Positions 43,174 to 63,390 of a stretch of 64,000 nt of DNA are shown here, piece after piece. The stretch is from Gordonia sihwensis NBRC 108236 (GTDB taxonomy: Bacteria; Actinomycetota; Actinomycetes; Mycobacteriales; Mycobacteriaceae). Positions within the stretch are counted from its first letter, which is position 1. Each line of letters opens with the position of its first letter. The stretch is taken from NCBI RefSeq assembly GCF_000333035.1, contig NZ_BANU01000008.1:62001-126000 (forward strand). Reading direction: 5' to 3'. The translations under genes were made by a program, and so were the position numbers. The notes under the pieces were generated by a model. The model was not told where the DNA came from and made no database searches. It saw only the letters and a list, made by a program, of their open reading frames with translations.

Positions 43174-43463
43174 GGTTGACCGTCAACCTTTCTCGTAGCG
43201 GTTCCCATACAGCGGTGTCACCGGCATCGCTGCCGATCAGCACTGGTGGGCCTTCCACGAAGTGGATAGTTGTGCATTGTTCAACGCCTGAAGATGCCAT
43301 TGGCTTTTCACCGGCACCGTCAAGCTGTATGAAGTTGTGGGCCCTGGGGGCACACTTCACCCAGGCAACCTGAAACAGTGTAGTGAACGCGCTGGCAGAA
43401 CCCAAATCGACCGCGGCGGGCCGAGAGCTCATCTCTGGCCCGCGGCGCGCGCATGTCCGGCTA

Positions 43464-43477
43464 GAGACTTTGGTCCT
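43464..43477 (+). promoter_or_regulatory. DosR-like box upstream of narG
   Basis: GAGACTTTGGTCCT agrees with the core of the DosR (hypoxia/NO) consensus GGGACTWWAGTCCC in 11 of 14 positions, 109 bp before narG. DosR control of nitrate genes is known in M. tuberculosis for narK2; here it is only suggested. Confidence 0.3.
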
Positions 43478-43524
43478 CATATCACATGGCCGTCGTACCC
43501 GGATCGTCCGGCCGTGCGTCGCGA

Positions 43525-43546
43525 GAATTCGGCGCCCTCCGAATTC
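43525..43546. promoter_or_regulatory. Inverted repeat operator before narG
   Basis: GAATTCGG-n6-CCGAATTC is a perfect 8-bp-arm dyad, 40-61 bp upstream of the narG ATG. A regulator of oxygen, nitrate or nitric oxide response may bind; which one is unknown. Confidence 0.5.
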
Positions 43547-43585
43547 ACCCGGCGCGGCATCACATCCCGTTTTACAGTGAGCCGT

Positions 43586-46500
43586 ATGACAGCGTCTGAC
43601 TCGGTTCAGGGCCCGGCAGCACAAGCATTGTTGGACGTCGGCCGCTTCTTCACCAAATGGGATGAGACCGACGACAGACGCGCGGTCTTCCGCGACGGCG
43701 GTCGTGCGGGCGACATCTTCTACCGCGACCGCTGGAGTCACGACAAGATCGTCCGGTCCACCCACGGGGTGAACTGCACGGGCTCGTGTTCGTGGAAGGT
43801 GTACGTCAAAGACGGCATCATCACCTGGGAGACACAGGAGACCGACTACCCGTCGGTGGGCCCCGACCGGCCGGAGTACGAGCCGCGCGGCTGCCCGCGC
43901 GGCGCCTCGTTCTCCTGGTACACCTACTCGCCCACCCGGGTCCGCCACCCCTATGCGCGCGGAGTGCTCCTGGAGATGTACCGGGAGGCCAAGCGCCGCA
44001 CCGGCGATCCCGTGCTCGCGTGGGCCGACGTGGTCGGCGACCCGCTGCGCCGGCGCTCCTACCAGCAGGCTCGCGGCAAGGGCGGACTGGTCCGCGTCAC
44101 GTGGGACGAGGCGATCGAGATGGCCGCCGCGGCGCACGTCCACACCATCAAGACCTACGGCCCCGACCGCTGCGCGGGCTTCTCCCCGATCCCTGCGATG
44201 TCGATCGTGAGCCACTGCGTGGGAACGCGGTTCATACAGCTAATCGGCGGCGTGATGACCTCGTTCTACGACTGGTACGCCGACCTCCCGGTGGCCAGCC
44301 CGCAGGTGTTCGGCGACCAGACCGATGTGCCCGAGTCGGGCGACTGGTGGGACGCGTCGTACCTGATGATGTGGGGATCCAACGTCCCGGTGACCAGGAC
44401 GCCCGACGCCCACTGGATGACCGAGGTCCGCTATCGCGGGACCAAGGTGGTCAGCGTCTCGCCCGACTACGCCGACAACTCCAAGTTCGCCGACGAGTGG
44501 CTGCCCGCCCAGGCCGGCACCGACGCGGCGCTCGCGATGGCGATGGGTCACGTGATCCTCAAGGAGTTCTACGTCGGCCGAGAAGGCGGACCGACCCCGT
44601 TCTTCGCCGACTTCACCCGCAAGTACACCGACCTCCCCTTCCTCATCCATCTCGACGAGCGCGACGGCACGCTGGTCCCCGGCAAGTTCGTGACCTCCGA
44701 GGAGTTGCGACCGGACCCGGCGAGCGGCCCCACCGAGGACGTCTGGAAGACGGTCCTGATCGACGACGCGACGGGCGAGCCGATGGTCCCGAACGGCACC
44801 CTGGGCGACCGGTACTCACCGTCCGGCGAAGGCCGGTGGAACCTCGATCTGGACGGTGTCACCCCACGGCTCACCCTGCTCGGTGAAACCGGCGCGGAGG
44901 CCGTCGAGGTCTCGTTCCCCTCCTTCGACGCCCCCGACGGCAGCGGCTCGGTGATCACCCGCGGAGTGCCCGCACGGCGATTCGGCGGGGGTCTGGTCAC
45001 CACCGTCTACGATCTGCTGCTGGCCCAGTACGGGGTGGGCCGCGATGGCCTCCCGGGCCAGTGGCCCACCGGCTACGACGACGCCTCCAGTCCCTACACG
45101 CCCGCGTGGCAGGCCGAGATCACCAGCGTCCCAGCCGAATCCGCAATCCGTATCGCCCGGGAGTTCGCCACCAACGCCGAGGAGTCCGGCGGCCGGTCGA
45201 TGATCATCATGGGTGCGGGCATCTGTCAGTGGTTCCACGGTGACGCCACCTACCGGGCGATCCTGGCCATGCTCATCCTCACCGGCTGCATGGGCCGCAA
45301 CGGCGGCGGGTGGGCCCACTACGTGGGCCAGGAGAAGTGCCGTCCGATCACCGGCTGGATCTCACTCGCCAACGCCCTCGACTGGACCCGTCCCCCGCGT
45401 ACCCAGCCGGGCACCTCGTACTGGTACATGCACACCGACCAGTGGCGCAACGACGGCTACTCCACGTCGGCCCTGACCTCACCGCTGTCATCGGGCACGC
45501 TCGACGGAATGCACACCGCCGACGCCATCGCGCAGTCGGCGCGGCTGGGATGGATGCCCTTCTATCCGCAGTTCTCCGACAACCCGCTCGACGTGGCCGA
45601 CGCCGCCCGCTCGGCGGTCGAGTCGGGCGACGCGACCGATCCCGCGTCGTACGTGGCCGGGAAGCTGGTCGACGGCGGGCTGACGCCGGCGATCAGCGAC
45701 GTCGACGCACCCGAGAACTGGCCGCGCACGCTGGTGCTGTGGCGGTCGAATCTGCTCGGCTCGTCGGCCAAGGGCGACGAGTACTTCCTGCGCCACCTGC
45801 TCGGCACCCATCACAACGTGCTCGGCAGCGAGAATCCCGAGGCCCCGAGGCCCCGGGAGGTGAAGTGGCACGAGCAGGCGCCCGAGGGCAAGCTCGACCT
45901 GCTGCTGTCGGCTGATTTCCGCATGACGTCGACGACGCTGTTGAGCGACATCGTGCTGCCCGCAGCGACCTGGTACGAGAAGCACGACCTCAGCTCCACC
46001 GACATGCACCCGTTCGTCCACGCCTTCAGTCCGGCGATCGATCCGCCGTGGGAGGCCAAGAGCGACTTCGACCTGTTCCACCTGCTGGCCGCGGAGTTGT
46101 CCCGGCAGGCGCGGACCCACCTGGGCACCCGCTACGACCTTGTCGCCACCGCCGCCCAGCACGACACCCCCGGCGAGACCGCGCAGCCGCACGGCCGGGT
46201 GGTGGACTGGCGCGACGGCGCACCGGCGATGCCCGGCGCGAACATGCCCTCGTTCCAGGTGGTGGAACGCGACTACACGGCCATCGCCGACAAGCTGGCC
46301 ACCGTGGGGCCGCTCGCCGACAAGCTGGGCTTCACCGTCAAGGACGTCAACTACGACATCGCCTCGCAGATCCCCAAACTGGCGGCGTCCAACGGAGTGA
46401 TGCCGCCCCGGCCCGGCGACGGCGCGAGCGGGCCGGACTTCGACCGACCGGGCGTCGGGCGTCCCGCCATCGACACCGACGCCAAGCTCGCCGAAGCGAT

Positions 46501-47338
46501 CTTGACCTTCTCCGGTACCACCAACGGCGAACTGGCCGTGGACGGCTTCACCAAGCTCGAACGCCGCGTCGGCAAGCGCCTCGCCGATCTCGCGGAGGGT
46601 TCGGAGGAGAAGCGCATCACCTTCGCCGACACGCAGTCGGCACCGGTGCCGGTCATCACCTCACCCGAGTGGTCGGGTTCGGAGAGCGGCGGACGACGGT
46701 ACGCGCCGTTCACCGTGAACATCGAGCGCGACAAACCCTTCCACACGCTCACCGGGCGTCTGCACTTCTACCTCGACCACGACTGGATGCTCGACATCGG
46801 GGAGGCGCTGCCGATCTACCGGCCGCCCCTCGACATGCATCGGTTGTTCGGCGAACCGAAGCTCGGCCCCGACGGCAGCAAGCAGATCACCGTCCGCTAC
46901 CTCACGCCGCACAACAAGTGGTCGATCCACTCCGAGTACCAGGACAACCTGTTCATGCTCTCGCTCTCGCGCGGCGGTCCCACCGCGTGGCTGTCGCCGG
47001 AGGACGCGGCGTCGATCGATGTGCACGACAACGACTGGATCGAGTGCGTCAACGCCAACGGCGTCTACGTCGCACGCGCCATCGTCAGCCACCGCATGCC
47101 GGTCGGGGTCTGCTACGTCCACCACGCCCAGGAGCGGACCATCGACGTCCCGAAGTCGGAGGCCACGGGCCGCCGCGGCGGCATCCACAACTCCGCGACC
47201 CGTCTGCTGGTGAAGCCCTCACATCTGATCGGCGGCTATGCGCAGCTGACGTACGCATTCAACTACCTCGGGCCGACGGGCAATCAACGCGACATCGTCT
47301 CGACCATCCGCAAGCGCAGCCAGGAGGTGACCTACTGA
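43586..47338 (+). CDS. narG: Respiratory nitrate reductase, alpha subunit
   Basis: A 1250-residue molybdopterin enzyme reducing nitrate to nitrite on the inner face of the membrane. The FS0 [4Fe-4S] ligands are His60, Cys64, Cys68 and Cys103, the His-first pattern of NarG. The YDWYADLPVASPQVFGDQ segment carries the aspartate that binds Mo. The ATG at 43586 is chosen because the frame upstream to 43337 has no similarity and crosses the promoter region; length equals other actinobacterial NarG. Weak RBS (GTGAG). The stop overlaps narH (TGATG), starting a run of six coupled genes. Confidence 0.96.
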   Translation: MTASDSVQGPAAQALLDVGRFFTKWDETDDRRAVFRDGGRAGDIFYRDRWSHDKIVRSTHGVNCTGSCSWKVYVKDGIITWETQETDYPSVGPDRPEYEPRGCPRGASFSWYTYSPTRVRHPYARGVLLEMYREAKRRTGDPVLAWADVVGDPLRRRSYQQARGKGGLVRVTWDEAIEMAAAAHVHTIKTYGPDRCAGFSPIPAMSIVSHCVGTRFIQLIGGVMTSFYDWYADLPVASPQVFGDQTDVPESGDWWDASYLMMWGSNVPVTRTPDAHWMTEVRYRGTKVVSVSPDYADNSKFADEWLPAQAGTDAALAMAMGHVILKEFYVGREGGPTPFFADFTRKYTDLPFLIHLDERDGTLVPGKFVTSEELRPDPASGPTEDVWKTVLIDDATGEPMVPNGTLGDRYSPSGEGRWNLDLDGVTPRLTLLGETGAEAVEVSFPSFDAPDGSGSVITRGVPARRFGGGLVTTVYDLLLAQYGVGRDGLPGQWPTGYDDASSPYTPAWQAEITSVPAESAIRIAREFATNAEESGGRSMIIMGAGICQWFHGDATYRAILAMLILTGCMGRNGGGWAHYVGQEKCRPITGWISLANALDWTRPPRTQPGTSYWYMHTDQWRNDGYSTSALTSPLSSGTLDGMHTADAIAQSARLGWMPFYPQFSDNPLDVADAARSAVESGDATDPASYVAGKLVDGGLTPAISDVDAPENWPRTLVLWRSNLLGSSAKGDEYFLRHLLGTHHNVLGSENPEAPRPREVKWHEQAPEGKLDLLLSADFRMTSTTLLSDIVLPAATWYEKHDLSSTDMHPFVHAFSPAIDPPWEAKSDFDLFHLLAAELSRQARTHLGTRYDLVATAAQHDTPGETAQPHGRVVDWRDGAPAMPGANMPSFQVVERDYTAIADKLATVGPLADKLGFTVKDVNYDIASQIPKLAASNGVMPPRPGDGASGPDFDRPGVGRPAIDTDAKLAEAILTFSGTTNGELAVDGFTKLERRVGKRLADLAEGSEEKRITFADTQSAPVPVITSPEWSGSESGGRRYAPFTVNIERDKPFHTLTGRLHFYLDHDWMLDIGEALPIYRPPLDMHRLFGEPKLGPDGSKQITVRYLTPHNKWSIHSEYQDNLFMLSLSRGGPTAWLSPEDAASIDVHDNDWIECVNANGVYVARAIVSHRMPVGVCYVHHAQERTIDVPKSEATGRRGGIHNSATRLLVKPSHLIGGYAQLTYAFNYLGPTGNQRDIVSTIRKRSQEVTY

Positions 47339-50461: not shown

Positions 50462-51697
50462 ATGACTGCGCCCGTGACAATCGACAAATCGGCCCAGACC
50501 CGCAATCTCGTTCTCGCCACCGTCGCCTTCGCGATCAGCTTCTGGGCCTGGAACCTGATCGCTCCGCTGGGCGTGTTCTACGCCGGACCGAACGAACTCG
50601 ATCTCGACTCCACGCAGAAGTCCGTGCTCGTCGCGGTGCCGATCCTCGTCGGCTCCCTCGGCCGGATCGTCGTCGGCGTGCTGACGCCCCGCTACGGCGG
50701 CCGCATCATGTTCACCGCGCTGCTGCTGATCTCGGCGCCCTTCGTGATTCTGGTGGCGGTGGCCGGTGAGCTGAAGTCGTACCCGATGTTGCTGGTGATC
50801 GGCTTCTTCCTCGGCATCGCGGGCACCACCTTCGCCGTCGGCATCCCGTTCCTGAACAGCTGGTACGAACCCAGTCGCCGCGGTTTCGCGACCGGCGTCT
50901 TCGGCGCCGGGATGGGCGGGACGGCGCTCTCGGCGTTCTTCACGCCGCGGTTCCGCGAATGGTTCGGCTACTTCCCCACGCACATCATCATCGCGGTGGC
51001 GCTGGTGGTGGTCGCGGTGGCCTGCTGGATGTTCATGCGCGAGGCCCCGGCGTGGGAGCCGAACACCGAGTCGGCGGTGCCGAAGCTCGTCGGCGCTCTC
51101 AAGCTGCCGATCACCTGGCAGATGTCCTTCCTGTATGCGGCGGCGTTCGGCGGATTCGTCGCTTTCTCCACCTACCTGCCGACGTACTTGAACGACGTCT
51201 ACGACATCACCGACCTGAAGTCGGCCGGCGCCCGCACCGCCGGATTCGCCATCGCCGCGGTGGTGATGCGACCGGTCGGCGGTGCACTCTCCGACAAGTT
51301 CGGGCCGCGGATCATCACCGCGATCTCGTGCGGCGGCGCCGCAGTGCTGGCCGTGTGGATGATGACCAAGCCCGACCTCGGCAGCGGGCTGGCCGCGGTC
51401 GACTTCATCCTGATGGCGATGATGATGGGAATGGGATCGGGTTCGGTCTTCGCCTGGGTGTCGCTGGCCTCACCGCCCGCACGCGTGGGCGCGGTCACCG
51501 GCCTGGTCGGTGCGGCGGGTGGCCTCGGCGGCTTCTTCCCGCCGCTGGTGATGGGCGCGACCTACAACGCGGTGGAGCACTCGTACACGATCGGCCTCGG
51601 GCTCCTGGTGGCCTTCGCGGCGGCGGCGTGTCTGTTCACCGTCTTCGGCATCCCGAAGAGTGAGGCCGAACGTGAGCGGGCGGAGGCGTCGGCATGA
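50462..51697 (+). CDS. narK: Nitrate/nitrite MFS transporter
   Basis: A 411-residue, 12-helix major facilitator of the NarK type. The nitrate signature regions are FLGIAGTTFAVGIPFLNSWY and GAAGGLGGFFPPLVMG. It should import nitrate for NarG and/or export nitrite; which of the two is not visible. Coupled to narI (no gap) and to the cupin gene (ATGA). Confidence 0.93.
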   Translation: MTAPVTIDKSAQTRNLVLATVAFAISFWAWNLIAPLGVFYAGPNELDLDSTQKSVLVAVPILVGSLGRIVVGVLTPRYGGRIMFTALLLISAPFVILVAVAGELKSYPMLLVIGFFLGIAGTTFAVGIPFLNSWYEPSRRGFATGVFGAGMGGTALSAFFTPRFREWFGYFPTHIIIAVALVVVAVACWMFMREAPAWEPNTESAVPKLVGALKLPITWQMSFLYAAAFGGFVAFSTYLPTYLNDVYDITDLKSAGARTAGFAIAAVVMRPVGGALSDKFGPRIITAISCGGAAVLAVWMMTKPDLGSGLAAVDFILMAMMMGMGSGSVFAWVSLASPPARVGAVTGLVGAAGGLGGFFPPLVMGATYNAVEHSYTIGLGLLVAFAAAACLFTVFGIPKSEAERERAEASA

Positions 51698-52023
51698 GCG
51701 CGGTGTCGTTACCCGAAGTGGTCGAGGAACTCCTGTCCGAGGCGCGCGAAGCGCACTCCGGGCGCGCCGGACGCACGGTGCGCGGTCACAGCGACCACCG
51801 GCTGCGGCACACCGTGATCGCGCTCCGCGCCGGCGCCGAGCTGTCCGACCACGAGAGTCCCGGCGAGGCGACCCTCCAGGTCCTCCATGGCCGCGTTCGG
51901 CTGACCTGTGAGGACGGCGACTGGGAAGGGGGCGCCGGCGCCCTCACCGATATTCCCCCGACCCGGCACGGACTGGTCGCCGACGACGACTCAGCGGTCC
52001 TGCTGACCGTCGCCCTGCGCTGA
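51694..52023 (+). CDS. Small cupin-domain protein at the end of the nar operon
   Basis: A 109-residue single cupin. The strand pattern HTVIALRAGAELSDHESPGEATLQVLHGRVRL fits the cupin core, with histidine and glutamate residues that might bind a metal. It is coupled by ATGA to narK, so is made together with nitrate reductase; its task is unknown. Its last 33 bases are overlapped on the other strand by the end of the modC frame. Confidence 0.78.
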   Translation: MSAVSLPEVVEELLSEAREAHSGRAGRTVRGHSDHRLRHTVIALRAGAELSDHESPGEATLQVLHGRVRLTCEDGDWEGGAGALTDIPPTRHGLVADDDSAVLLTVALR

Positions 52024-53124
52024 CCTCGGCGGGCCGGCGGAGATTTCGGCTCCCGGACGGGGCTCACAGCCCCGTCCGGGAGCCGAAATCTCATCGGGCG
52101 TGCGCAAGCGCCGAACTCGCATCCCGGTCGGGGTGAACCACGCCTGTTCTCCGACACCCGGCGGCACCGCACCCACCGGAGTCTGCGCCACCAGACCGCC
52201 GTCGCTCTCGACGAGTACCCGGCCCGCGTGCACCGACACCGAACGCACCCGGCTCCGGACCGCGCCCGACGTCCGGGACACCGTGACCTCGTGCGGAACC
52301 ACGATCCCGAACGCCCGGGCCCCGTCCGCGACGTCCTCGACCGCGACCGCCGGCAGCACATCGTCCCCGGTCACCAGGGCGCCCTCACTCCAGACGCCGT
52401 GCACCACCGCGTATCCCGCCAGGGCTGCGCTGAACGGATGAGCCGGCGCCGCGGCCATCTGCGCCGGCGTCGTCTCCTCGACGACGGTGCCCGACTCGAT
52501 CACCAGACACCGGCTCGCCCACTGCCATGCGTCCGCCAACTCGTGTGTCACCAGGACGCTGGTGGTCCCCGTGCGCGCGAGCTCGTCGGAGAGCATCCGC
52601 CGGATCTGCGGAGCGCTGGCCGCATCGAGCGCGGCGAAGGGCTCATCGAGCAGCAGCACCTCGGGTTCGGCGGCGAGCGCGCGGGCGATCGCGACCCGCT
52701 GCTGCTGGCCGCCCGAGAGGCGATGCGGCTTCCACCCGCCCGCATCGGGCAGACCGATCCGATCGAGCCAGCCCTCCGCGACCGCGCGCGCCTGCCGCCG
52801 GGATCGGCCCTGGGCACGCGGCCCGAAGGCCAGATTGTCGACGACCGACAGGTGCGGGAAGAGCCGGGGCTTCTGCTCGAGCAAGGTCACTCTGCGCTGC
52901 TCGGGCGGGACGTGGACGCGGCCGTCGAGGACTCGTCCACCCAGGCGGATCTCGCCCGCGGTCGGCCGGATGAGACCCGCCAGCGCGCCCAGGAGCGTCG
53001 ACTTGCCCGCACCGTTCGGTCCCAGTACCGCCAGGCACTCCCCGTCCGGCACCTCGAACGCGGCCGAGACGGTGAACTGCGCTCGGCGGATCTCGATGCG
53101 CGCGGTGAGCGGCTGGCCGCTCAC
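51991..53124 (-). CDS. modC: Molybdate ABC transporter ATPase
   Basis: A 377-residue ATPase: Walker A GPNGAGKS (35-42), signature LSGGQQQR (136-143), Walker B LLLDE (to Asp160-Glu161), and a C-terminal Mop/TOBE part (VVHGVWSEGALVTGDDVL onward) typical of ModC. GTG at 53124 overlaps the modB stop by GTGA. The protein reads through a long palindrome (52040-52092) and then antisense into the cupin gene, giving a tail of about 35 residues foreign to the family; the natural end was probably near GMRVRRLR. Confidence 0.92.
   Translation of the reverse strand: MSGQPLTARIEIRRAQFTVSAAFEVPDGECLAVLGPNGAGKSTLLGALAGLIRPTAGEIRLGGRVLDGRVHVPPEQRRVTLLEQKPRLFPHLSVVDNLAFGPRAQGRSRRQARAVAEGWLDRIGLPDAGGWKPHRLSGGQQQRVAIARALAAEPEVLLLDEPFAALDAASAPQIRRMLSDELARTGTTSVLVTHELADAWQWASRCLVIESGTVVEETTPAQMAAAPAHPFSAALAGYAVVHGVWSEGALVTGDDVLPAVAVEDVADGARAFGIVVPHEVTVSRTSGAVRSRVRSVSVHAGRVLVESDGGLVAQTPVGAVPPGVGEQAWFTPTGMRVRRLRTPDEISAPGRGCEPRPGAEISAGPPRSAQGDGQQDR
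52040..52092. repeat. Perfect 25-bp-stem palindrome between cupin and modC ends
   Basis: Positions 52040-52064 are exactly complementary to 52068-52092, with a CAC loop; the outer end is GAGATTTCGGCTCCCGG. It lies 16 bp after the cupin stop and inside the modC frame. Its length and perfection suggest a mobile palindromic repeat rather than an ordinary terminator, but it can end transcripts from both sides. Confidence 0.8.
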
Positions 53125-53909
53125 CGGACCGCGTCCGTTCGCCACGACCGCAGCCCGAGCACGATCACCGCGGTACTCACCAGCAACAGCAACGAGAGCG
53201 CAACCGCCGAATCCTGCGTGACGCCCACCCCGTTGAAGGCGGTGTAGATGGCCAGGGGCATGGTCCGGGTGACGCCCGGAGAGTTCCCCGCGAACAGTGC
53301 CGTCGCCCCGAACTCGCCGAGCGCGCGTGCGAAGGCGAGCGCCCCACCGGCGGCCAGACCCGGCAGCACGAGCGGAAGCGTGATCCGCGACAGCACGCGC
53401 CAACGGCCGGCTCCGAGGGTCGAGGCGATCTGCTCGTAGCCGTCGCCTGCGGTTCGCAGCGCACCCTCGACCGCGATGACGTAGAACGGCATGGCGACGA
53501 ACGTCTGCGCCACCACCACCGCGGCAGTCGTGTACGGCAGGCTGTAGCCCGTCGCCTCGAACACCGGCTTGCCGACCAGCCCCGACCGACCCAGCAACGA
53601 CAGCAGCGCCAGTCCGCCGACCATCGGCGGCAGCACCAGGGGGATCAGGACCGTCGCGCGCAGCACCGACGCCCAGCGCTGCGGCGCGCGGGCGATCACC
53701 ACGGCCAGCGGGGTGCCGATCACAGCGCACGCGGCGGTCGCACAGGCCGCGGTGACCAGCGACAGCCACAGTGCCGTCAGCGATGCCGACGAGAAGAGGT
53801 CGGCGCCGAGCGTCTCCCACCGCACCCGCGAGATCAACCCGACGATGGGCGCGACCAACAGAGCCAGCGCGACCAGCGCGGGCACGTACAGCGCCTTCGG
53901 CAGCATCAC
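53121..53909 (-). CDS. modB: Molybdate ABC transporter permease
   Basis: A 262-residue permease with six helices and the ABC-coupling loop ALGEFGATALFAGNSPG that contacts ModC. The [22 protein letters not shown] segment is the usual binding-protein-dependent transport signature. 43 bp after modA, overlapping modC. Confidence 0.93.
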   Translation of the reverse strand: MMLPKALYVPALVALALLVAPIVGLISRVRWETLGADLFSSASLTALWLSLVTAACATAACAVIGTPLAVVIARAPQRWASVLRATVLIPLVLPPMVGGLALLSLLGRSGLVGKPVFEATGYSLPYTTAAVVVAQTFVAMPFYVIAVEGALRTAGDGYEQIASTLGAGRWRVLSRITLPLVLPGLAAGGALAFARALGEFGATALFAGNSPGVTRTMPLAIYTAFNGVGVTQDSAVALSLLLLVSTAVIVLGLRSWRTDAVR

Positions 53910-53952: not shown

Positions 53953-54711
53953 TCACGGCGCGCCGAAACCGTACTTCGCCAGGATCTTCTGTCCTGCGGG
54001 CGAGAGGACGTAGGCGGTGAAGGCAGCGGCGGCCGCCGGCGACGGAGCCTTCTTCGACACCGCGATCGGGTAACGGTTGACCGCGACCTGAACGTCGGCG
54101 GGAGTGATGCCGATCAGCTTGCCGTTCGAGGCGGCCACATCGGTCTTGTAGACCAGACCGGCGTCGGCCTCGCCCGCCTCGACGCGGTTGACCACCGAGG
54201 TCACGTTGGTCTCCTCGCTGACCGGCGAGACGTCGACGTGCGCGGCGGCGAGCAGCTTGCGTGAAGCCTTGCCACAGGGCACCTCCGGAGCGCAGAGCAC
54301 GGTGGTGACTCCGGGCTTCGTCAGGTCGGCCAGGCTCGTGACGTGCTTCGGGTTGCCCGGCGCGACGGCGATCTGCATCGTATTGGTCGCGAAGACGGTG
54401 CCCGCGTCGGTGACACCGGCGTCGGTGACCGGCGTGAGACTCGACTGGTCCGCGAAGGCGATGACGTCGACGTCGGCGCCCTCCACGATCTGGGTCGCGA
54501 GGGCCTGCGAGCCGTCGTACACGATCGGCGCCACCGAGTACTCCGGGTGCGCCGCGGTGAAGGACTTGGCCAGTTCGTCGAACGATCCCTGCAGCGAGGC
54601 CGCGGCGAAGATCCTGATCGGCGCCGAGGCACCGGCCGACGCCTGCTCCTGACTGCTGCATCCGGCTACCAGCAGCATCAGTCCGAGCACTGCGGCCACG
54701 AACTTCTTCAT
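53953..54711 (-). CDS. modA: Molybdate-binding lipoprotein
   Basis: A 252-residue periplasmic-type binding protein anchored by a lipobox (VAGC, Cys18). The ligand region starts IRIFAAASLQGSFDELAKSF, where serine residues bind the oxyanion. The ATG shares one base with the stop of the HTH-Mop gene. The frame stays open upstream to 55809 only because of GC-rich composition. Confidence 0.94.
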   Translation of the reverse strand: MKKFVAAVLGLMLLVAGCSSQEQASAGASAPIRIFAAASLQGSFDELAKSFTAAHPEYSVAPIVYDGSQALATQIVEGADVDVIAFADQSSLTPVTDAGVTDAGTVFATNTMQIAVAPGNPKHVTSLADLTKPGVTTVLCAPEVPCGKASRKLLAAAHVDVSPVSEETNVTSVVNRVEAGEADAGLVYKTDVAASNGKLIGITPADVQVAVNRYPIAVSKKAPSPAAAAAFTAYVLSPAGQKILAKYGFGAP

Positions 54712-55306: not shown

Positions 55307-56529
55307 TCACCGTCGACGAGCACCGCTCCCGGATTCAGACAACCGTGTCGCGCCTGCCCGCGACCATCCTCTCCATTCACAGTGCGGCCGGGCTCGTCCT
55401 CGCCGAGGACGTCACCAACCGGTGGCCGGTCCCGCTGTTCGACAACTCCGCGATGGACGGTTACGCCGTCCGGCGCGTCGACGCAGCGGTGGGCGCGACG
55501 CTGAAGGTGGTCGCCGACGTTCCCGCGGGCAGTCCGGACGACCCGCCGATCGGCGCCGGAGAGGCCGTCCGGATCATGACCGGCGCGCCGGTTCCCACCG
55601 ACGCCGACGCGATCGTCCCCCTGGAGCACACGGATCTCGGCACCGAGATCCTGGCGACGCCCCCGGACAGCGTGACCGTCACGGTGGAACCGAAACCGCA
55701 CGCCCACATCCGGCGATCCGGCGAGGACGCACCGGCGGGCGCCGTCGCCGTTTCGGCGGGCACGGTTCTCGGCCCGTGGCAGGTGTCGGCGATCGCGTCG
55801 GCCGGACACGACCGGGTCCTGGCCTACCGCCGGCCCCGGGTCGCTGTGATCTCGACCGGAACCGAACTCGTCGAACCCTCGCAGACGCCCCGCCGCGGGC
55901 AGATCCCGGAATCCAACTCCGTGCTGCTGTCGGCCGCGGTGGCGGAGGCGGGCGCCGAAGTGGGCTGGACGGCGACCGTCGAGGACGACGAGGAAGCCCT
56001 CCGGCGGACTCTCGCCGATCCGGACGTGGACGCGGTCGTCCTCACCGGCGGCGCCAGCGTCGGCGCGTTCGACGTGGTCAAAGCGGTCCTGAACGGGGTG
56101 GTCGGCATCGAGTTCACCACCGTGGCGATGCAGCCCGGCAAACCGCAGGGCTTCGGGCTACTCGGGGTGCGCGCCCCGAGCGCCGAACGCACCGGGATCC
56201 CGGTGTTCTGCCTGCCCGGCAACCCGGTCAGCGTCGCGGTGTCGTTCGAGATGTTCGTGCGGCCGGCCCTGCGGAAGATGGCCGGGCACACCGACCTCGA
56301 TCGCCCGCGCGTGGTCCGGCGCGCCGCGACGGGCTGGCGCAGCCGCGCCGACCGGGTCCAGATCCTTCCCGCGGTGGCCGACGCACAGACCGTCCGGCCG
56401 GCCTCCCGCGGCGGCAGTGGCTCACACCTGGTGTCCTCGCTCGCCGACGCCTCCGCGCTGGCGATCGTGCCCGCGGACGTGGTGGAGATATTCGAGGGAG
56501 ATCCCGTCACCGTGATGGTGCTGTCATGA
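55303..56529 (+). CDS. moeA: Molybdopterin molybdenumtransferase MoeA
   Basis: A 408-residue enzyme inserting molybdate into adenylylated molybdopterin. Motifs: [11 protein letters not shown] near residue 45, [17 protein letters not shown], the MPT-binding [16 protein letters not shown] and [18 protein letters not shown] at 55303 overlaps a short upstream frame. First main gene of moeA-moaC-mobA-DUF6457-moaD, with stop and start overlaps throughout. Confidence 0.95.
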
Positions 56530-56999
56530 GCGGCGGCCCCTTCACTCACCTGGACGATGCGGGCCAGGCACGCATGGTCGACGTGACCGAGAAGAATCCG
56601 ACGGTCCGCAGTGCGACCGCGCAGGGCTTCGTCCGGTGCTCGCCGCAGATCGTCGCCGCCCTCCGCGACGGCGCGGTCCCTAAGGGGGATGTGCTGGCGG
56701 TGGCGCGCATCGCGGGCATCTCGGCCGCCAAACGCACTCCGGAACTGCTGCCGCTGGCCCATGTGATCGGCGTGCACGGCGCGGCCGTCGACCTCGCGAT
56801 CGTCGACGACGGCGTCACCGTCTCGGCGACGGTCCGCACCGCCGATCGCACGGGGGTGGAGATGGAGGCGCTCACCGCCGTCAGCGTCGCCGCGCTGGCG
56901 CTCGTCGACATGGTGAAGGGCCTCGACAAATCGGTCGAGATCGAGAACGTCCGGCTGGTGCGCAAGACCGGCGGCAAGAGCGGCGACTGGGTGCGATGA
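56526..56999 (+). CDS. moaC: Cyclic pyranopterin monophosphate synthase MoaC
   Basis: A 157-residue MoaC, second step of Moco synthesis with MoaA. Diagnostic: [27 protein letters not shown] and [20 protein letters not shown]. Overlaps moeA and mobA by ATGA. Confidence 0.96.
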
Positions 57000-57583
57000 C
57001 CGCGGCCATCGTGCTCGCCGGAGGTCGTGCCGCCCGCATGGGCGGTGCCGACAAGGCAAGTATCGACATCGGCGGGCGCACGCTGATCGACGCCGTGTAC
57101 GACGCACTCGCCGGCGCCGACCCGGTGATCGCGGTCGGACCGCAGAGCGTGGGCCGGCCGGGTGTGCGGGTGATCCGGGAGGATCCCCCGTTCGGCGGTC
57201 CGGTGGCCGGACTGGCCGCGGCACTCGGGGCCGTCGGCGACAGCGCCGAGGTGTGGCTGCTCGCCTGCGACCTGCCCCGCGCCGAGGCGGTGGTCGCGCA
57301 ACTCCGGGACGTCGCTCTCGCCGCCGTGGACGACGCGGTGGTCCTGGAAGACGCCGACGGCCGGATCCAGTGGCTGGCGGGACGGTACCGGACGGAGTCG
57401 CTTCGCCGGGCGGTCGCCGCGCTGACCAGTGCGCGTGACGCGTCGATGCGGGCGCTGACCGCGGGGCTGTCGCTGCGCACGGTGGTCGACCGAGCCGGCG
57501 CCGCGATCGACCTCGACACCTGGGACGACGTGCGCGATTATCGGTTGACCACCCGAACCGTCGATACGGAGGACGAATCGTGA
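56996..57583 (+). CDS. mobA: Molybdenum cofactor guanylyltransferase MobA
   Basis: A 195-residue nucleotidyltransferase that attaches GMP to Mo-molybdopterin, forming the MGD cofactor that NarG needs. The start [19 protein letters not shown] is the GTP-binding loop, and [15 protein letters not shown] and [10 protein letters not shown] are typical. ATGA overlap with moaC; GTGA-type overlap with the next gene. Confidence 0.92.
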
Positions 57584-57825
57584 CCGCCTATCCCCCCGGC
57601 CTGGACCGCTGGGCGCAGGAACTCGCCCCGGCCCTGGGTCGGAATGAGGCCGAGGTGCCCACCGCGCTGCTGCTGGATGTGACCCGCGATGTCGCTCACT
57701 CGATCCTGCGCCCGGCCGGCCCCATCACGACCTATCTGATCGGCCTCGCCGTCGCGAACGGCATGTCGGCAGAGGATGCGGCCGCACGGGTGCACGAACT
57801 GGTGGAGAAGAGATCGGCCGAATGA
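57580..57825 (+). CDS. Small DUF6457-like protein in the Moco operon
   Basis: An 81-residue helical protein (LDRWAQELAPALG, LLLDVTRDVAHSILRPAGPITTYLIGLAVANG). Proteins like this occur next to Moco genes in actinobacteria, but no role is known. GTG start overlaps the mobA stop, and its stop overlaps the moaD ATG, so it is made in step with both. Confidence 0.78.
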   Translation: MTAYPPGLDRWAQELAPALGRNEAEVPTALLLDVTRDVAHSILRPAGPITTYLIGLAVANGMSAEDAAARVHELVEKRSAE

Positions 57826-58058
57826 TCATCCGTTACTTCGCGGGAGCCGCGGAGGCCGCGGGCCGTTCGGAGCAGACCGCTGACGGTTCCGCGGCGGTCG
57901 GCGACTTGAAGGCTCGGCTGTCCGGAGAACTGGGCCCCGAGTTCGAGCGAGTGCTGAGCTGCTGTTCGATCCTGGTGGACGGGGTCCGCGCCACCGACGA
58001 GACGGTCGCGGCGGCCGACGCCACCGTGGACGTCCTGCCGCCCTTCGCCGGCGGCTGA
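57822..58058 (+). CDS. moaD: Molybdopterin synthase sulfur carrier subunit
   Basis: A 78-residue ubiquitin-like protein. It ends in Gly-Gly, required for thiocarboxylation, and PPFAGG is the typical tail. With MoaE it forms molybdopterin synthase. Its activator MoeB/MoeZ is not in the window. Its end faces moaA with only 16 bp between. Confidence 0.93.
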   Translation: MIIRYFAGAAEAAGRSEQTADGSAAVGDLKARLSGELGPEFERVLSCCSILVDGVRATDETVAAADATVDVLPPFAGG

Positions 58059-58074
58059 CGGCACCGGCTCGGGC

Positions 58075-59076
58075 TCACCCGCCGATCGCGGACATCGGAC
58101 GGTCGGGCTGCAGGAAGCCGGGATCGTCGATGCCGTGTCCGGCGAGCTTCGCGGTCACCGACTCGCGGATGGCCGACTCGATCCGTTCGTCCGGTGCCCC
58201 GGAACGCAGCAGCGCACGCAGATCCGATTCACCGCGTGCGAACAGGCAGTTCCGGAGCTGTCCGTCGGCGGTGAGTCGCACCCGGTCGCATGAACCGCAG
58301 AACGGCGCGGTCACCGAGGCGATGACCCCGACGGTGGTGGGCCCGCCGTCGACCGTGTACAGCTGTGCCGGATTCGAGCCGCGGTCGTCGCACGCGCTGA
58401 GGGCGAACTCCGCCGACAGGGCCGCGAGGATGTCGTCACCGGTGACCATCTGCGCCCTCGACCAGGTGTGCCCGGCATCGAGCGGCATCTGCTCGATGAA
58501 TCGCAATTGAGCGCCGTGCTCGCGCGCGAAACGGACGAGGTCGGTCAGCTCGTCGTCGTTGACGCCGTGCATCGCGACGGTGTTGATCTTGAGCGGCGTG
58601 AGGCCGGTGGCCTGTGCGGCGGCGATCCCGCGGAGCACGTCGTCGAGCCGGTCCCGGCGGGTCAGCGTCGCGAACCGGTCCGCTCGCAGCGTGTCGAGGC
58701 TGATGTTGAATCTCTCCAGACCCGCATCGGCCAGCTCCCGAGCCCGCGTGTCCAGTCCGATCCCGTTGGTGGTGATGGAGACGCGCAGCGGTCCGTCCGC
58801 GCCCTCGATCGCCGAGAGCCGGTGCACCACGTCGGCCAGGTCGGGTAGCAGCAGCGGCTCGCCCCCGGTCAGCCGTACCTCGACGATCCCCAGCGACGCG
58901 AAGACCGACGCCAGACGGATGATCTCGTCGGTGGTCAGCAGTTCGGGACGCGGGATCCACGGCACGCCCTCGGCGGGCATGCAGTAGGTGCACCGGAGGT
59001 TGCACCGGTCGGTCAGGGAGATCCGGAGATCTCGGTGCACGCGGCCGAATCGATCGACGAGCTCGCGGCCGGTCAT
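58075..59076 (-). CDS. moaA: GTP 3',8-cyclase MoaA
   Basis: A 333-residue radical SAM enzyme, first step of Moco synthesis. The SAM cluster ligands are Cys25, Cys29, Cys32 (CNLRCTYC), and the C-terminal second [4Fe-4S] site is Cys260, Cys263, Cys277. The protein ends in the essential Gly-Gly (MSAIGG). ATG at 59076 overlaps the moaE stop; the frame upstream is moaE antisense-free extension without similarity. Confidence 0.96.
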   Translation of the reverse strand: MTGRELVDRFGRVHRDLRISLTDRCNLRCTYCMPAEGVPWIPRPELLTTDEIIRLASVFASLGIVEVRLTGGEPLLLPDLADVVHRLSAIEGADGPLRVSITTNGIGLDTRARELADAGLERFNISLDTLRADRFATLTRRDRLDDVLRGIAAAQATGLTPLKINTVAMHGVNDDELTDLVRFAREHGAQLRFIEQMPLDAGHTWSRAQMVTGDDILAALSAEFALSACDDRGSNPAQLYTVDGGPTTVGVIASVTAPFCGSCDRVRLTADGQLRNCLFARGESDLRALLRSGAPDERIESAIRESVTAKLAGHGIDDPGFLQPDRPMSAIGG

Positions 59077-59501
59077 GTCGCGACCCGGCCCAAGCCGACC
59101 CACGTGTGCGAGCCGTCGCTCTCGATCTGCTTCTTCCATATCGGCAGTTCGGCCTTCACCGTCTCCACCAGATCGCGATCGAGGTCGAAGGCGTCACCGC
59201 GATGCACCGACGAGACCGCTGCGACGATCGCGACGCCGCCGACCGGCAGCCGGCCGACCCGGTGGCTGACCGCGATCCGCACTCCGGGTCGGTCGACGCG
59301 CTCCGCGATCTCGCGCAGGATGCGCTCGCTGTCGGGGTGAGCGCTGTACTCCAGTTCCACTACCTGCCCGCGCGCGTCGGGATCGTTGTCGCGCACCGTC
59401 CCCACGAACAGCGCGGTGGCGCCCGCATCCGGTGCCGCTACGGCGTTCACATGGGCCGCGACGTCGAGGTCGACGTCACTGATCCGGGCGAGGACGATCA
59501 T
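59073..59501 (-). CDS. moaE: Molybdopterin synthase catalytic subunit
   Basis: A 142-residue MoaE with the VGTVRDNDP and LEYSAHP motifs, VSHRVGRLPVGGVAI and the catalytic lysine region PIWKKQ. Coupled by overlap to mog before and moaA after. Confidence 0.94.
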   Translation of the reverse strand: MIVLARISDVDLDVAAHVNAVAAPDAGATALFVGTVRDNDPDARGQVVELEYSAHPDSERILREIAERVDRPGVRIAVSHRVGRLPVGGVAIVAAVSSVHRGDAFDLDRDLVETVKAELPIWKKQIESDGSHTWVGLGRVAT

Positions 59502-59983
59502 CGGTGATCGCCTCCGGCGGCCTGAGCGACGGCGTGCTCGGCGATCTGCACGATCACGGGGACACCGTCGCGCACCGCGCCGGTCGACCCCGCCAGATTC
59601 ACCACGAGGGAACCGCGCCGCATGCCCGCGACGCCCCTGGAGAGCATCGCGTGCGGCAGTGCCGCGATGCCGACCCGCCGGATCTCCTCTGCCACGCCGG
59701 GCAGTTCACGCGTCAGCAGCGGTGCCGTGGCCTCGGGCGTCACATCGCGGGGCGAGACGCCGGTGCCGCCGGTCGTGACGACAAGACCCGAACCGGCCTC
59801 CACCACTTCGACGATCACACTCGAGATCGCGTCGCGATCGTCGGGGACGACGATCACCTCGGCGCTCCAGCCCGCCTCCCCGAGGAGATCGGCCGCCAGC
59901 GGACCGGAGACGTCCTCGCGTTCGCCGGCGAACGACCGGTCGGAGACGGTGATCACCGTCGCGCGCTTCTGCTTGGAATCCAC
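59498..59983 (-). CDS. mog: MogA/MoaB-family molybdopterin adenylyltransferase
   Basis: A 161-residue protein that adenylates molybdopterin before MoeA acts. TVITVSDRSFAGEREDVSG and the TTGGTGVSPRDVTPEAT motif are diagnostic. The GTG at 59983 gives the family length. An ATG at 60049 overlaps the stop of the channel gene (ATGA) and would add 22 residues; it cannot be excluded and would explain the coupling. Confidence 0.9.
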   Translation of the reverse strand: MDSKQKRATVITVSDRSFAGEREDVSGPLAADLLGEAGWSAEVIVVPDDRDAISSVIVEVVEAGSGLVVTTGGTGVSPRDVTPEATAPLLTRELPGVAEEIRRVGIAALPHAMLSRGVAGMRRGSLVVNLAGSTGAVRDGVPVIVQIAEHAVAQAAGGDHR

Positions 59984-60045
59984 ACCTTCGAGCGTGCCAC
60001 GTCCGATGCCGCGGCGTGAACCGCACGGCCGTTTCATTCCGGTGC

Positions 60046-60723: not shown

Positions 60724-60884
60724 CGACCACCTCCGAGTCCGTCTTCGACCTGCATGCGGCAGACGCGTGAGGCGTCCGAGGCCCGATCAGCCCGAGGTGA
60801 ATCTAGCGCAGGCACCGCGCCTGGTGAGCAGCGGAATCCCCGTCGCCGGCTCCGCGGGTCCGCGGAGCCTGGCAGACTGGAGAC

Positions 60885-61124: not shown

Positions 61125-61362
61125 CCTGCGGTCGGAGCCGACGCGCCGTACGCTGTCAGTGCACCTGACCGGACCGGCTGCGAGATCGGACTCATCCGAC
61201 ATCCGCCGGACCCTTGCGAACCACGGATGCGCCGCATCCCGTCCCGAACCCGATGGCCTCGCCGAATACGGTGGGGCCATCGGTGTCTGGACGCTACGCG
61301 GCGAGCCTCCGGGGGTTAAAGGCCAAAATGTGTGTACGGCCCGGGCGTGGCGTCGGGGTGGT

Positions 61363-62544
61363 TTATCGGTTTCGTCCTCCCCAGCCGTGTTGGATACCGT
61401 TGCCGTCTTCCCAGTTGAAGCCGGTGTCGTAGGCGGCCGGTCCGATCTGCTCGTCTTCGAGCGGAGTTTCCTTCGGTCGTGGCGGCGGTGGGTTGTAGTG
61501 CTCGGCGCGGACCAGGCTCCACGGATCGTGTGGGTGGGCGGTGAGGCTGTTCAGTTTCCATTCGGCGGCCCGGCGGGCGTGTTCGGTGAGGAACCCTCGA
61601 TGGGTGCGGAACAGGTCCTTGAGGGCCTTGTTGGGGCCGCCTTCGAGAGGTGAGGTGGTCCGCGGGAGCGGGTGGTCCTCGTCGGTCAGGCGGGGGTCGA
61701 TCCAGGTGAACAGGTGCTCGGCGGCGATGAGCTTGCGGAACAGGCCGCGGGTGCGGCGGAGGTCGCGGTGGGTGTACCACCAGGTGCTGGCCTCGGCGAC
61801 GCCTCGGGGGCGGACGGTGTGCGGGCGGGCGTAGGTCCGATGCCGGAGGAATCGGTCGTGTTCATGCTCCCAGTCGTTGTAGGCCTGCAGCCACAGCACG
61901 GCCTGGTCGGCGTTGCGGATGTTCATCAAAGCTGTTGTCAGAGAGATGATTTGGCGTGCTGCGTCAGTTCTCGGGTTGTACGTGTGGTGGCGGCGGATGG
62001 TCTGGAAGATGTGGAAGTAGCAGCGTTGGACTCGGGTGGTGGGCCAGTCGTCGGAGATCGCTGAGAGCAGCCCGCGGCCGCCGTCGATGACCGCGATGCG
62101 TGGGGCGGGTTGGCGTTGCAGGATCTGCTGCCAGGCGATCTTCTTCTCGCGGTCACACCATTGCCAGTCGACGACGTGGGTGCCGTCGAAGGCGATCAGC
62201 AGGCACCAGGATTGGAAGTAGGTGCCATCGAGCATCAACACCTGTGCCGGCTCGGTCAGCGGCGGTGGTGGCGGGACTTCGATGTTCCAGCACCAGGAGC
62301 GTGAGCGGCGGAAGGTGCGGGCGATGACGTGGTCGGGCTGTCGGCCGTGCAGGAGCCAGGTGTGGAACGCGGTGAGCTCGGCTTTGCGGGTGACATCGGG
62401 GCGCTTCTGGGTGCTGGAGGCGCCGCAGTCCTTGCAGCGCCAGCGGGTGCGGCCGGCGCTGGTGGTTCCGTTCTTGACGAGCTTGCGACCGCATACACCA
62501 CAGGATGGGGAATTCCGAGAACCTGACACCGAACATGCTTTCAA
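61363..62544 (-). CDS. IS256-family (IS1249-type) transposase
   Basis: A 393-residue transposase, apparently intact. An N-terminal zinc ribbon (CGVCGRKLVKNG...WRCKDCG) is followed by an HTH-like region, then the catalytic core with the first Asp in LMLDGTYF and the second in VIDGGRGL, and the RVQRCYFHIFQTIRRH segment typical of the family. The frame begins at a TTG (62544), which lies in a palindrome; no ATG or GTG in frame is found before it within the element. Confidence 0.92.
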   Translation of the reverse strand: MKACSVSGSRNSPSCGVCGRKLVKNGTTSAGRTRWRCKDCGASSTQKRPDVTRKAELTAFHTWLLHGRQPDHVIARTFRRSRSWCWNIEVPPPPPLTEPAQVLMLDGTYFQSWCLLIAFDGTHVVDWQWCDREKKIAWQQILQRQPAPRIAVIDGGRGLLSAISDDWPTTRVQRCYFHIFQTIRRHHTYNPRTDAARQIISLTTALMNIRNADQAVLWLQAYNDWEHEHDRFLRHRTYARPHTVRPRGVAEASTWWYTHRDLRRTRGLFRKLIAAEHLFTWIDPRLTDEDHPLPRTTSPLEGGPNKALKDLFRTHRGFLTEHARRAAEWKLNSLTAHPHDPWSLVRAEHYNPPPPRPKETPLEDEQIGPAAYDTGFNWEDGNGIQHGWGGRNR

Positions 62545-62554
62545 AGCATGTTCG
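62530..62554. promoter_or_regulatory. Palindrome overlapping the transposase start
   Basis: CGAACATGCTTT-C-AAAGCATGTTCG is a perfect dyad with 12-bp arms. The TTG start of the transposase is in its centre. It could be an operator for self-repression or an RNA hairpin that hides the start in transcripts entering from outside. Confidence 0.6.
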
Positions 62555-62572
62555 ACCCACCATCACCCGAGG

Positions 62573-63265
62573 TCAGGCATCAGAAATCAGCGGATCTGTA
62601 CACACATGTTGGCCTTTAACCCGCCTCCGGTTCCGCTGTTCCACCGCGAAGTGTGCGAACACGATCAAGCTGAGGAATGCGGCGAAGGTGCACCAGATCG
62701 AGGCGTATCCCGCGGCGTTCATCACCGCGGCGACGCTCATCGCGACGAGATTGCCCGCTCCCATCGCGACGACGTAGCGGTGCGAGCTCGACATCGGCGC
62801 GACGCAGGTGGCGAACACATAGGGAACGGCCAGCCAGGCAGCACTGAACGGGACGCCGAGCCGGTAGTCGAGGTTGCCGTCGACCACCGCGACGCTGATA
62901 CCGGGCTGGATCGCGAGATACAGCATGTACACCGCGAGCACCGCGCCGACTCCCAGCGGAACCGTCTGCAACCGGCGCCGGTGTGGCTCCGATTCCATCA
63001 GCCACACGGCCCACGGGATGTAGGCAGGCAGCACGGCCCACGCGAACATCACCCACATGTGCACGCCTGCGCCGGAGAGCAGCGCCTCGCTGCGGTCGCC
63101 GAGCGCCAGCCAAGTCCATCCCTCCAGCGCCTGATGCACCCCGAAGAGCAACGGCAGCGCCGCGAAGGGCAGCTGCCGCACATCCCGGACCAGGCACAGG
63201 GTGGTGGCGCCCACCGCGGTGATCACACCGGCGCCCACGAAACTCGCAGTCGCGCTGAAGCACAT
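62573..63265 (-). CDS. DUF6629-like membrane protein with C-terminus altered by the IS
   Basis: A 230-residue protein with about seven helices; start MCFSATASFVGAG is the sign of the DUF6629 family (unknown function). The open frame to 63310 is not needed. After EQRNRR the frame enters the insertion sequence and ends in the foreign tail VKGQHVCTDPLISDA. Joining the flanks without the IS restores the older end LAA and a stop at 61294-61296. The membrane part is untouched, so function may survive. Confidence 0.85.
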   Translation of the reverse strand: MCFSATASFVGAGVITAVGATTLCLVRDVRQLPFAALPLLFGVHQALEGWTWLALGDRSEALLSGAGVHMWVMFAWAVLPAYIPWAVWLMESEPHRRRLQTVPLGVGAVLAVYMLYLAIQPGISVAVVDGNLDYRLGVPFSAAWLAVPYVFATCVAPMSSSHRYVVAMGAGNLVAMSVAAVMNAAGYASIWCTFAAFLSLIVFAHFAVEQRNRRRVKGQHVCTDPLISDA

Positions 63266-63331
63266 GCGTCGAATCCTGCCACTCGCGCGGGCACGGCAGC
63301 GGACATTCACCCTCGGCCGCGCCGCAGAACG

Positions 63332-63370
63332 GACGAGGACCCGCCTCCTTGAAGGAGACGGGTCCTCGTC
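63332..63370 (-). terminator. Strong terminator directly after rpsN
   Basis: A 19-bp stem (63332-63350 against 63352-63370) with one mismatch, outer end GACGAGGACCCG, begins 20 bp past the rpsN stop. It ends the proximal spc transcript, confirming that rpsH is not reached from there. Confidence 0.85.
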
Positions 63371-63390
63371 ACATGCCTATCGGCGGGAAG

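What the first reader, a model, noticed from the sequence alone, without database searches (positions are those of the whole stretch)
43174..63390. The spc ribosomal operon is split by a 20-kb nitrate-respiration/Moco module
rpsN and rpsH, adjacent in mycobacteria, are 20 kb apart here. Between them lies a nearly self-sufficient unit for nitrate respiration: molybdate import, cofactor synthesis, NarGHI assembly and nitrate transport. Seen directly: gene order, terminator after rpsN, and rpsH divergent from narG. From memory, Corynebacterium glutamicum carries formate dehydrogenase and mob-type genes between rplE and rpsH; if so, this site repeatedly takes up molybdoenzyme modules. That would make the ribosomal operon a landing site for anaerobic metabolism and could link ribosome synthesis to respiration.
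Basis: partly seen in the sequence, partly recalled or inferred. Interest (0 to 1): 0.85.

Follow-up and report, generated by a model that had tools for sequence, protein, structure and literature searches.

The report
Ribosomal operon seam with RNA leader
A set of ribosome genes is cut in two at a natural seam that carries its own promoter and a conserved folded RNA, so unrelated genes (here for breathing nitrate) can sit between the halves; the folded RNA may be how these bacteria control that half of the operon.

Summary
In detail: rpsH and rpsN lie 20.2 kb apart, with narGHJI-narK, modABC and a molybdenum-cofactor (Moco) set between them. The split is present in all 59 held genomes of the genus and in 64 of 131 sampled genomes of the family. 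In 48 of 51 split loci from other genera I found no molybdenum-related gene. narG is common at this place in the genus; the Moco set was seen there in only four genomes. No coupling to respiration is visible: narG lies 0.35 to 42 kb from rpsH.

rpsN|rpsH is one of two wide spacers in the operon. Many split genomes carry a conserved promoter there (TTGGNN-N17-TACACT). In split and unsplit genomes alike, a covarying RNA leader ends just before the rpsH start codon (best model match at rpsH in 124 of 131 genomes). It has no Rfam match, and I found no description in the papers searched. By position and E. coli precedent it is most likely an S8-responsive ribosomal leader. Ligand and regulation are inferred, not shown; the model finds no resemblance to this genome's 16S rRNA.

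The parts
42775..43173 (-). rpsH (ribosomal protein S8), first gene of the downstream half rpsH-rplF-rplR-rpsE-rpmD-rplO-secY-adk-map
   Evidence: Pfam S8 match; gene calls
43187..43267 (-). core of the conserved RNA leader: P1 (UUCGUGG/CUACGAG), P2 (GGCCC/GGG-AA-CC), variable apical part, next to the Shine-Dalgarno-like AAAGG
   Evidence: model R1 69.1 bits; folds into P1 and P2 on its own
43174..43370 (-). predicted whole 5' leader of the rpsH transcript (start inferred from the -10 box)
   Evidence: start site not measured
43377..43405 (-). promoter-like TTGGGT-N17-TACACT of the rpsH unit
   Evidence: conserved in the genus alignment
43628..47338 (+). narG (start uncertain; the ORF opens at 43337)
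   Evidence: TIGR01580 1510.8 bits
47338..49014 (+). narH
   Evidence: TIGR01660
49059..49718 (+). narJ (start uncertain; the ORF opens at 49011)
   Evidence: TIGR00684
49715..50461 (+). narI
   Evidence: TIGR00351
50462..51697 (+). narK-like MFS transporter
   Evidence: TIGR00886, below cut-off
51694..52023 (+). 109-aa protein, no NCBIfam or Pfam match; relatives in other gaps of the genus
51991..53145 (-). modC-like ABC ATPase
53121..53909 (-). modB-like permease
53953..54711 (-). modA
   Evidence: TIGR01256
55303..56529 (+). moeA-type gene
56526..56999 (+). moaC
   Evidence: PF01967
56996..57583 (+). mobA-like
57580..57825 (+). DUF6457
57822..58058 (+). moaD-like (ThiS family)
58075..59076 (-). 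moaA
   Evidence: TIGR02666
59073..59501 (-). moaE-like
59498..59983 (-). mog/moaB-like
61313..62622 (.). complete IS1249-family insertion sequence (25-bp inverted ends, 8-bp target duplication)
63329..63374 (-). strong hairpin after rpsN, no T run
63391..63576 (-). rpsN (type Z S14), last gene of the upstream half rplN-rplX-rplE-rpsN
   Evidence: NF005974; gene order

Best explanation
The spc operon of this family is built from two units that meet at rpsN|rpsH. In this window the upstream unit (rplN-rplX-rplE-rpsN) is followed by a terminator-like hairpin, and the downstream unit (rpsH onwards) has its own promoter-like site and a structured RNA leader that ends at the ribosome-binding site. 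DNA inserted between hairpin and promoter cuts no transcript of either half, so the junction can open in many lineages and fill with whatever is tolerated. In this genus it often holds narGHJI, and in a few members also a Moco set. The leader is most likely a ribosomal leader: an r-protein of the unit, most probably S8, would bind P1/P2 when in excess and hide the AAAGG site. Shown: the split, its distribution, the wide spacer, promoter conservation and covarying structure. Inferred: transcription start, regulation, ligand.
For: Split in 59 of 59 genus genomes and 64 of 131 family genomes. In all 43 of 51 fetched split loci of other genera that keep the type-Z rpsN it stays 5-17 bp from rplE, so the break is rpsN|rpsH. 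Spacer medians: rpsN|rpsH 213 bp, rplO|secY 223 bp, all other junctions 40 bp or less; distances over 1.5 kb only at rpsN|rpsH (4 of 53 named loci), rplO|secY (4 of 140) and adk|map (1 of 137). Promoter pattern in 72 of 100 split and 1 of 60 unsplit loci; 2 of 3200 shuffled sequences; ten further loci first left out have none. Leader: 93.5% of cells paired, 69 double-sided changes against 17.4 in shuffles, 0 of 500 reach it; the same with only the 42 rows that had one candidate site, 0 of 1000. RNAalifold predicts 10 of the 12 pairs unaided; the window's core and 36 of 50 rows form P1 and P2 in their single-sequence minimum-energy fold. Model R1 hits 25-30 bp before the S8 match in 124 of 131 genomes, 61 of 64 split and 63 of 67 unsplit. 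Outside the class, 0 of 109 genomes have a hit at rpsH.
Against: No intrinsic-terminator pattern after rpsN. The strict promoter pattern is missing in 28 of 100 split loci: all 13 Corynebacterium-type loci, all 5 of genus g30, 7 of 11 Nocardia-type loci and 3 of 40 of the window's genus, among them L180, a close relative of the window. The two outermost P1 pairs fail in 10 and 17 of 50 rows. In the full 197-nt leader the minimum-energy fold replaces P1 by a local hairpin, although P1 has probability up to 0.79 in the ensemble. R1 finds nothing in this genome's 16S rRNA locus up to E=10, so rRNA mimicry is not seen. Some mycobacteria lack the leader (M. interjectum L011; G124, G139, G175 by model). 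No transcript or binding data. The pair shuffles do not correct for relatedness.
Confidence: 0.7

Rival explanations
1. One reading: the ribosomal operon is a landing site for molybdoenzyme modules and ties ribosome synthesis to anaerobic respiration.
For: nar in this genus (32 of 33 decidable genomes with narG); FdhD and a molybdopterin oxidoreductase in C. pacaense; Moco genes in G177; FdhD homologues in L082 and L084.
Against: 48 of 51 split loci of other genera show no Mo-related gene with my queries; 18 of 59 genus genomes lack narG over the cut-off but are split; rpsH-narG distance 350 bp to 42 kb. In other genera narG was not found in the gap: 0 of 51 split loci, and 32.9 kb or more from rpsH in the 22 of 27 compared positions that share its contig.
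Confidence: 0.05
2. The split is ancestral in the family and intact operons were rejoined by deletion, rather than many separate splits.
For: Split lineages share not only the promoter pattern but similar flanking letters (CTACACTnGAnCGGTTGCC), which argues for one origin of the promoter. L007 (Mycolicibacterium) is unsplit but has the promoter in a 579-bp spacer.
Against: With irreversible splitting the tree needs 12-13 events, Fitch parsimony 12 changes in either direction; the outgroup loci in the tree are unsplit. A middle view, an ancestral unsplit operon with an internal promoter, fits both.
Confidence: 0.3
3. Mobile elements opened the operon; the interval is a genomic island.
For: Complete IS1249-family element in the interval; an IS110-type transposase in the C. 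pacaense gap.
Against: No IS1249 relative in 100 other fetched gap stretches; no tRNA gene in the window; GC of the interval like its flanks; nar is found at this place across the genus. Other transposases and integrases were not searched systematically.
Confidence: 0.1
4. The RNA is real but is not an S8 leader: it binds another protein of the unit, works by attenuation or by switching between P1 and a local hairpin, or only tunes translation.
For: No match to the 16S rRNA of this genome; a competing local hairpin in the full-leader fold; ligand guesses from position are uncertain, as PMC7247131 itself states.
Against: rpsH is next in all 124 genomes with a hit, and S8 is the known repressor of spc in E. 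coli (passages of PMC10931766).
Confidence: 0.35

Closest known systems
Ribosomal leaders (r-leaders), e.g. the 20 of Eckert and Weinberg 2020 (PMC7247131)
   Same: Conserved covarying structure, consistently just upstream of an r-protein gene, limited to one lineage
   Different: None of the 20 in their Table 1 is assigned to S8 or lists rpsH (their supplementary list of older r-leaders was not seen); no Rfam 15 match
E. coli spc operon control by S8
   Same: By inference acts on the same operon, possibly with the same protein
   Different: The E. coli site lies at the start of rplE and resembles the 16S site (PMC10931766 passages); here the element is upstream of rpsH, after rplE and rpsN, and no 16S resemblance was detected with the model
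Corynebacterium gaps between rplE and rpsH
   Same: Split at the same place; a formate-dehydrogenase-type gene set in C. pacaense
   Different: Type-Z rpsN not found in the 8 fetched loci of that genus; the proteins scanned from other such gaps include lipases, PhoX, VWA/AAA, HlyD and AMP-binding proteins
Respiratory nitrate reductase operon narGHJI-narK
   Same: All four subunit models over cut-off
   Different: Placed divergently between the two halves of a ribosomal operon

Membership tests
Ribosomal leader (r-leader) | covarying conserved structure | tested here: met
Ribosomal leader (r-leader) | consistently directly upstream of an r-protein gene | tested here: met
   124 of 131 genomes, 25-30 bp from the S8 HMM start
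Ribosomal leader (r-leader) | transcribed with the gene | not testable with these tools
   only a promoter pattern
Ribosomal leader (r-leader) | binds an r-protein encoded downstream and represses | not testable with these tools
   no binding data
E. coli-type S8/spc site | lies at the rplE start | tested here: not met
   element is upstream of rpsH
E. coli-type S8/spc site | resembles the 16S S8 site | tested here: inconclusive
   model R1: no hit in the own 16S locus L282 up to E=10; no structural comparison made
Any Rfam 15 family | match at gathering score | tested here: not met
   window and nine relatives' loci
NarGHJI nitrate reductase | subunit models over curated cut-off | tested here: met
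Integrative element or genomic island | tRNA target, integrase, odd composition | tested here: inconclusive
   no tRNA, GC like flanks; IS1249 not in 100 other stretches; integrases not searched

The most novel reading that the evidence does not exclude
A class-wide (Actinomycetes) S8-responsive RNA leader controls the rpsH-to-rplO half of the spc operon. It would be the first autoregulatory element of this operon known outside the gammaproteobacteria, and as part of a self-contained promoter-plus-leader unit it is why the operon breaks at exactly this junction in many lineages.
Probability: 0.45. Interest if true: 0.8.

Novelty: new variant of a known kind. Interest (0 to 1): 0.6.

Why it matters
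[quoted passage not shown] A conserved leader at rpsH in the family and in other Actinomycetes (Streptomyces, Arthrobacter and others among the named loci) gives a directly testable candidate. It also turns a puzzling split of a ribosomal operon into a plain rule: operons break where a promoter and leader already make a seam.

Tried and rejected
Coupling of nar and ribosome expression: not supported on variable spacing and the separate promoter pattern. Site specialised for molybdenum: rejected. One-off insertion in this strain or assembly error: rejected, the split is in 59 of 59 genus genomes. IS1249 as cause: rejected, not found in 100 other gap stretches. Vertical descent of narG within the genus: not clean; two NarG of genus g10 nest inside the genus clade, base support 0.634, so I make no claim. 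Mimicry of the 16S site: no support from the model search. Plasmid search for the IS: no match. Paper searches for a split spc operon, Gordonia nar genes, an rpsH leader or an Actinobacterial S8 leader: no description found in the listings; most subscription papers are not held. A regex first used for the leader was mis-written and replaced.

Selections: A1 holds 50 of 138 distinct leader sequences, chosen by me for diversity; long-loop Corynebacterium versions were left out. Of the loci with at least 120 bases upstream, 150 gave the motif and 21 did not; the 73 tree loci have no upstream DNA. Where several AGG sites were possible (26 of 150 loci, 8 of the 50 in A1) I chose by P1 pairing, which favours the structure; the 42 single-candidate rows gave the same result. 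Ten loci (L008, L012, L019-L021, L023-L025, L027, L028) were left out; none has the pattern. Three of the 64 'split' genomes have the two genes on different contigs or strands rather than a measured gap. Of 55 split genomes outside the window's genus, 51 were fetched (not G064, G125, G128, G143), one cut short by 0.8 kb (L089). In the genus I fetched gap DNA, in part or whole, of 38 other genomes. The genus has narG elsewhere in G011, and 8 genomes are undecidable because of contig breaks. The search with R1 over many genomes used stricter filters that lose weak matches.
Full report
What the window holds. The window is G000:C57:62001-126000 of a 4.14-Mb, 64-contig genome. The genus has 59 held genomes; its name is not given by any search. 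Its nearest named relative by rpsH is Williamsia herbipolensis (93%), and from recall I take it to be Gordonia. rpsH (42775-43173, -) and type-Z rpsN (63391-63576, -) are 20,232 bp apart. Between them, from rpsH outward: narGHJI-narK (+), a 109-aa protein, modC-modB-modA (-), moeA-moaC-mobA-DUF6457-moaD (+), moaA-moaE-mog (-), a glycine-transporter-domain gene, a small ORF, an IS1249-family element, DUF6629. GC of the interval resembles its flanks and there is no tRNA gene in the window.

The split is old and general. In the genus, 48 of 59 genomes have both genes on one contig and strand with gaps of 2,997 to 117,605 bp; the other 11 have them on different contigs or strands. None is contiguous. 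In the family sample (131 genomes, 31 genera) the rplE-rpsH distance shows a split in 64, three of these by contig or strand only, and contiguity in 67. On a ribosomal-protein tree of 93 leaves, 46 split, irreversible splitting needs 13 events (12 if weak nodes are collapsed) and Fitch parsimony 12 changes; the window's genus belongs to a clade of seven all-split genera, support 0.917.

Contents vary. narG lies between rpsH and rpsN in 32 genus genomes, in each pointing away from rpsH, 350 bp to 42 kb from it; one genome has it elsewhere, eight cannot be decided, 18 have none over the cut-off. moaA is in the interval in this genome, G017 and G030; in G052 the Moco set and narK lie beside rpsN on a contig that ends there. 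Proteins scanned from gaps in other genera include an amino-acid permease, TerD/AIM24, PAP2, OsmC, lipases, PhoX, HlyD and VWA/AAA proteins. Urease lies in the gap, or beside rpsH in the rearranged G016, in 7 of 38 genus genomes fetched in part or whole, and in 2 of 51 loci of other genera; Mo-related genes lie in 3 of those 51. Among the 8 fetched loci of that genus, 3 show FdhD or Moco relatives and 5 do not.

Why this junction. Across 53 to 153 loci per junction, the internal junctions of the operon have median spacers of 40 bp or less, except rpsN|rpsH (213 bp) and rplO|secY (223 bp). Those two are the places that split in this set; the only other case over 1.5 kb is one adk|map (the junctions upstream of rpsH rest on the named loci only). 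In addition, 8 mycobacterial loci have rplO but no secY found in the 4.4-7.7 kb downstream, so that seam seems to open too. In the 43 of 51 split loci with type-Z rpsN, rpsN stays 5-17 bp from rplE.

Promoter. A TTGGNN-N16-18-TA(C/G)ACT site lies about 190-315 bp before rpsH in 72 of 100 split loci and 1 of 60 unsplit loci, against 2 of 3200 shuffled upstream regions; in the window it is 43405-43377. It is conserved across the genus alignment. The single unsplit case, L007, has an unusually long spacer (579 bp) and looks like a state before splitting. The strict pattern is absent in 13 of 13 Corynebacterium-type loci, 5 of 5 of genus g30, 7 of 11 Nocardia-type loci and 3 of 40 of the window's genus, which must use variants or other promoters.

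RNA leader. Comparing upstream regions showed an element ending at the ribosome-binding site: P1 of about 7 pairs, a short unpaired stretch, then P2 GGYCC/GGRAACC with an AA bulge, then a variable apical part. On 50 sequences 93.5% of pair cells are standard pairs, 69 cells change on both sides (shuffles 17.4; 0 of 500 reach it), and sliding the partner by one to three columns drops pairing below 49%. Position 12-99 alone takes six pair types; P2 shows C-G to U-A in 15 rows; the two outermost P1 pairs fail in 10 and 17 rows. RNAalifold finds the inner 10 of these 12 pairs unaided. Restricting to the 42 rows where I made no choice between candidate sites gives the same result, 0 of 1000. Folded alone, the window's 81-nt core has P1 and P2 in its minimum-energy structure, as do 36 of 50 rows at the stated threshold. 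In the full 197-nt predicted leader the minimum-energy fold prefers a local hairpin over P1, with P1 at up to 0.79 in the ensemble; the two may compete.

Distribution. The covariance model R1 has its best hit 25-30 bp before the S8 match in 124 of 131 family genomes, 61 of 64 split and 63 of 67 unsplit; at rpsH the weakest are E 0.0138 (G060) and 4.4e-4 (G094). Seven further hits elsewhere are weak, best E 1.3e-4. In a phylum sample of 119, it hits at rpsH in 4 of 5 family members and 3 of 5 other class members; among 109 genomes outside the class there are 2 weak hits, neither at rpsH. One further weak hit, 19.6 bits, lies in this genome in L133. Of three split Corynebacterium-genus genomes missed by the model, two show the whole motif by eye and one (L086) only its 3' half. 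Rfam has no family for it.

Mechanism. P1's 3' strand directly precedes AAAGG, which lies 14-18 nt before the ATG. A protein that stabilises P1/P2 would hide that site. S8 is the usual first guess: it heads the unit and is the known repressor of spc in E. coli; the rule 'prefer a known ligand encoded in the operon' is taken from PMC7247131. I found no resemblance to this genome's 16S rRNA with the model, so the ligand is the weakest step. The split follows as a by-product: the seam here has a 3' hairpin upstream and a promoter and leader downstream.

Literature seen. PMC7247131: outline, first two of three parts of the Results, and term passages. PMC10931766: term passages. PMC2864571: term passages. 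PMC8388888: term passages, which list rpsH among genes with an antisense RNA in Streptomyces ambofaciens, not a leader. Others only as search listings.

Noticed in passing
window 61313-62622: Complete IS1249-family insertion sequence with 25-bp inverted ends (96%) and an 8-bp target duplication GCCTCCGG; the called DUF6629 gene ends inside it. No relative in 100 other gap stretches.
   Followed up: yes
G016 (L160, L161): The two halves of the spc operon lie about 2.5 Mb apart on opposite strands of one contig.
   Followed up: partly
L151, L162, L174, L176, L089, L094: Urease genes, in several genus genomes with a NicO nickel transporter gene, sit in the same rpsN-rpsH gap; also in two genomes of genus g30.
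   Followed up: partly
L139:5013-8273 and relatives: A 1086-aa HerA/AAA ATPase recurs in the gap in 11 genus genomes and 3 genomes of the Williamsia genus; possibly a defence-type system, not tested.
   Followed up: no
G002:C1:515602-520707: narG carries in-frame stop codons (search output), so it looks like a pseudogene.
   Followed up: no
G055:C1:4173271-4290877: The rpsN-rpsH gap reaches 117.6 kb in this genome.
   Followed up: partly
L133:2863-3107: Upstream of rplN the next called genes (362, 392 aa) were not recognised as ribosomal, so the S10 and spc parts may also be separated in this genome; not checked by a family search.
   Followed up: no
L011 upstream of rpsH: Mycobacterium interjectum has only a 19-bp rpsN-rpsH spacer and no leader motif; three genus g29 genomes also lack a model hit, which suggests loss in some mycobacteria.
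   Followed up: partly
L008: A contig titled Acidobacteriaceae carries an rpsH 91% identical to the window's, so it is probably mis-binned.
   Followed up: no
L275, L276: NarG of two genus g10 genomes nests within the window genus's NarG although narG was not found in their ribosomal gap; base support 0.634.
   Followed up: partly
window 43174-43370 (-): The full-leader fold shows a local hairpin (UCCACUUCGUGGA) that competes with P1, which could be a switch.
   Followed up: partly
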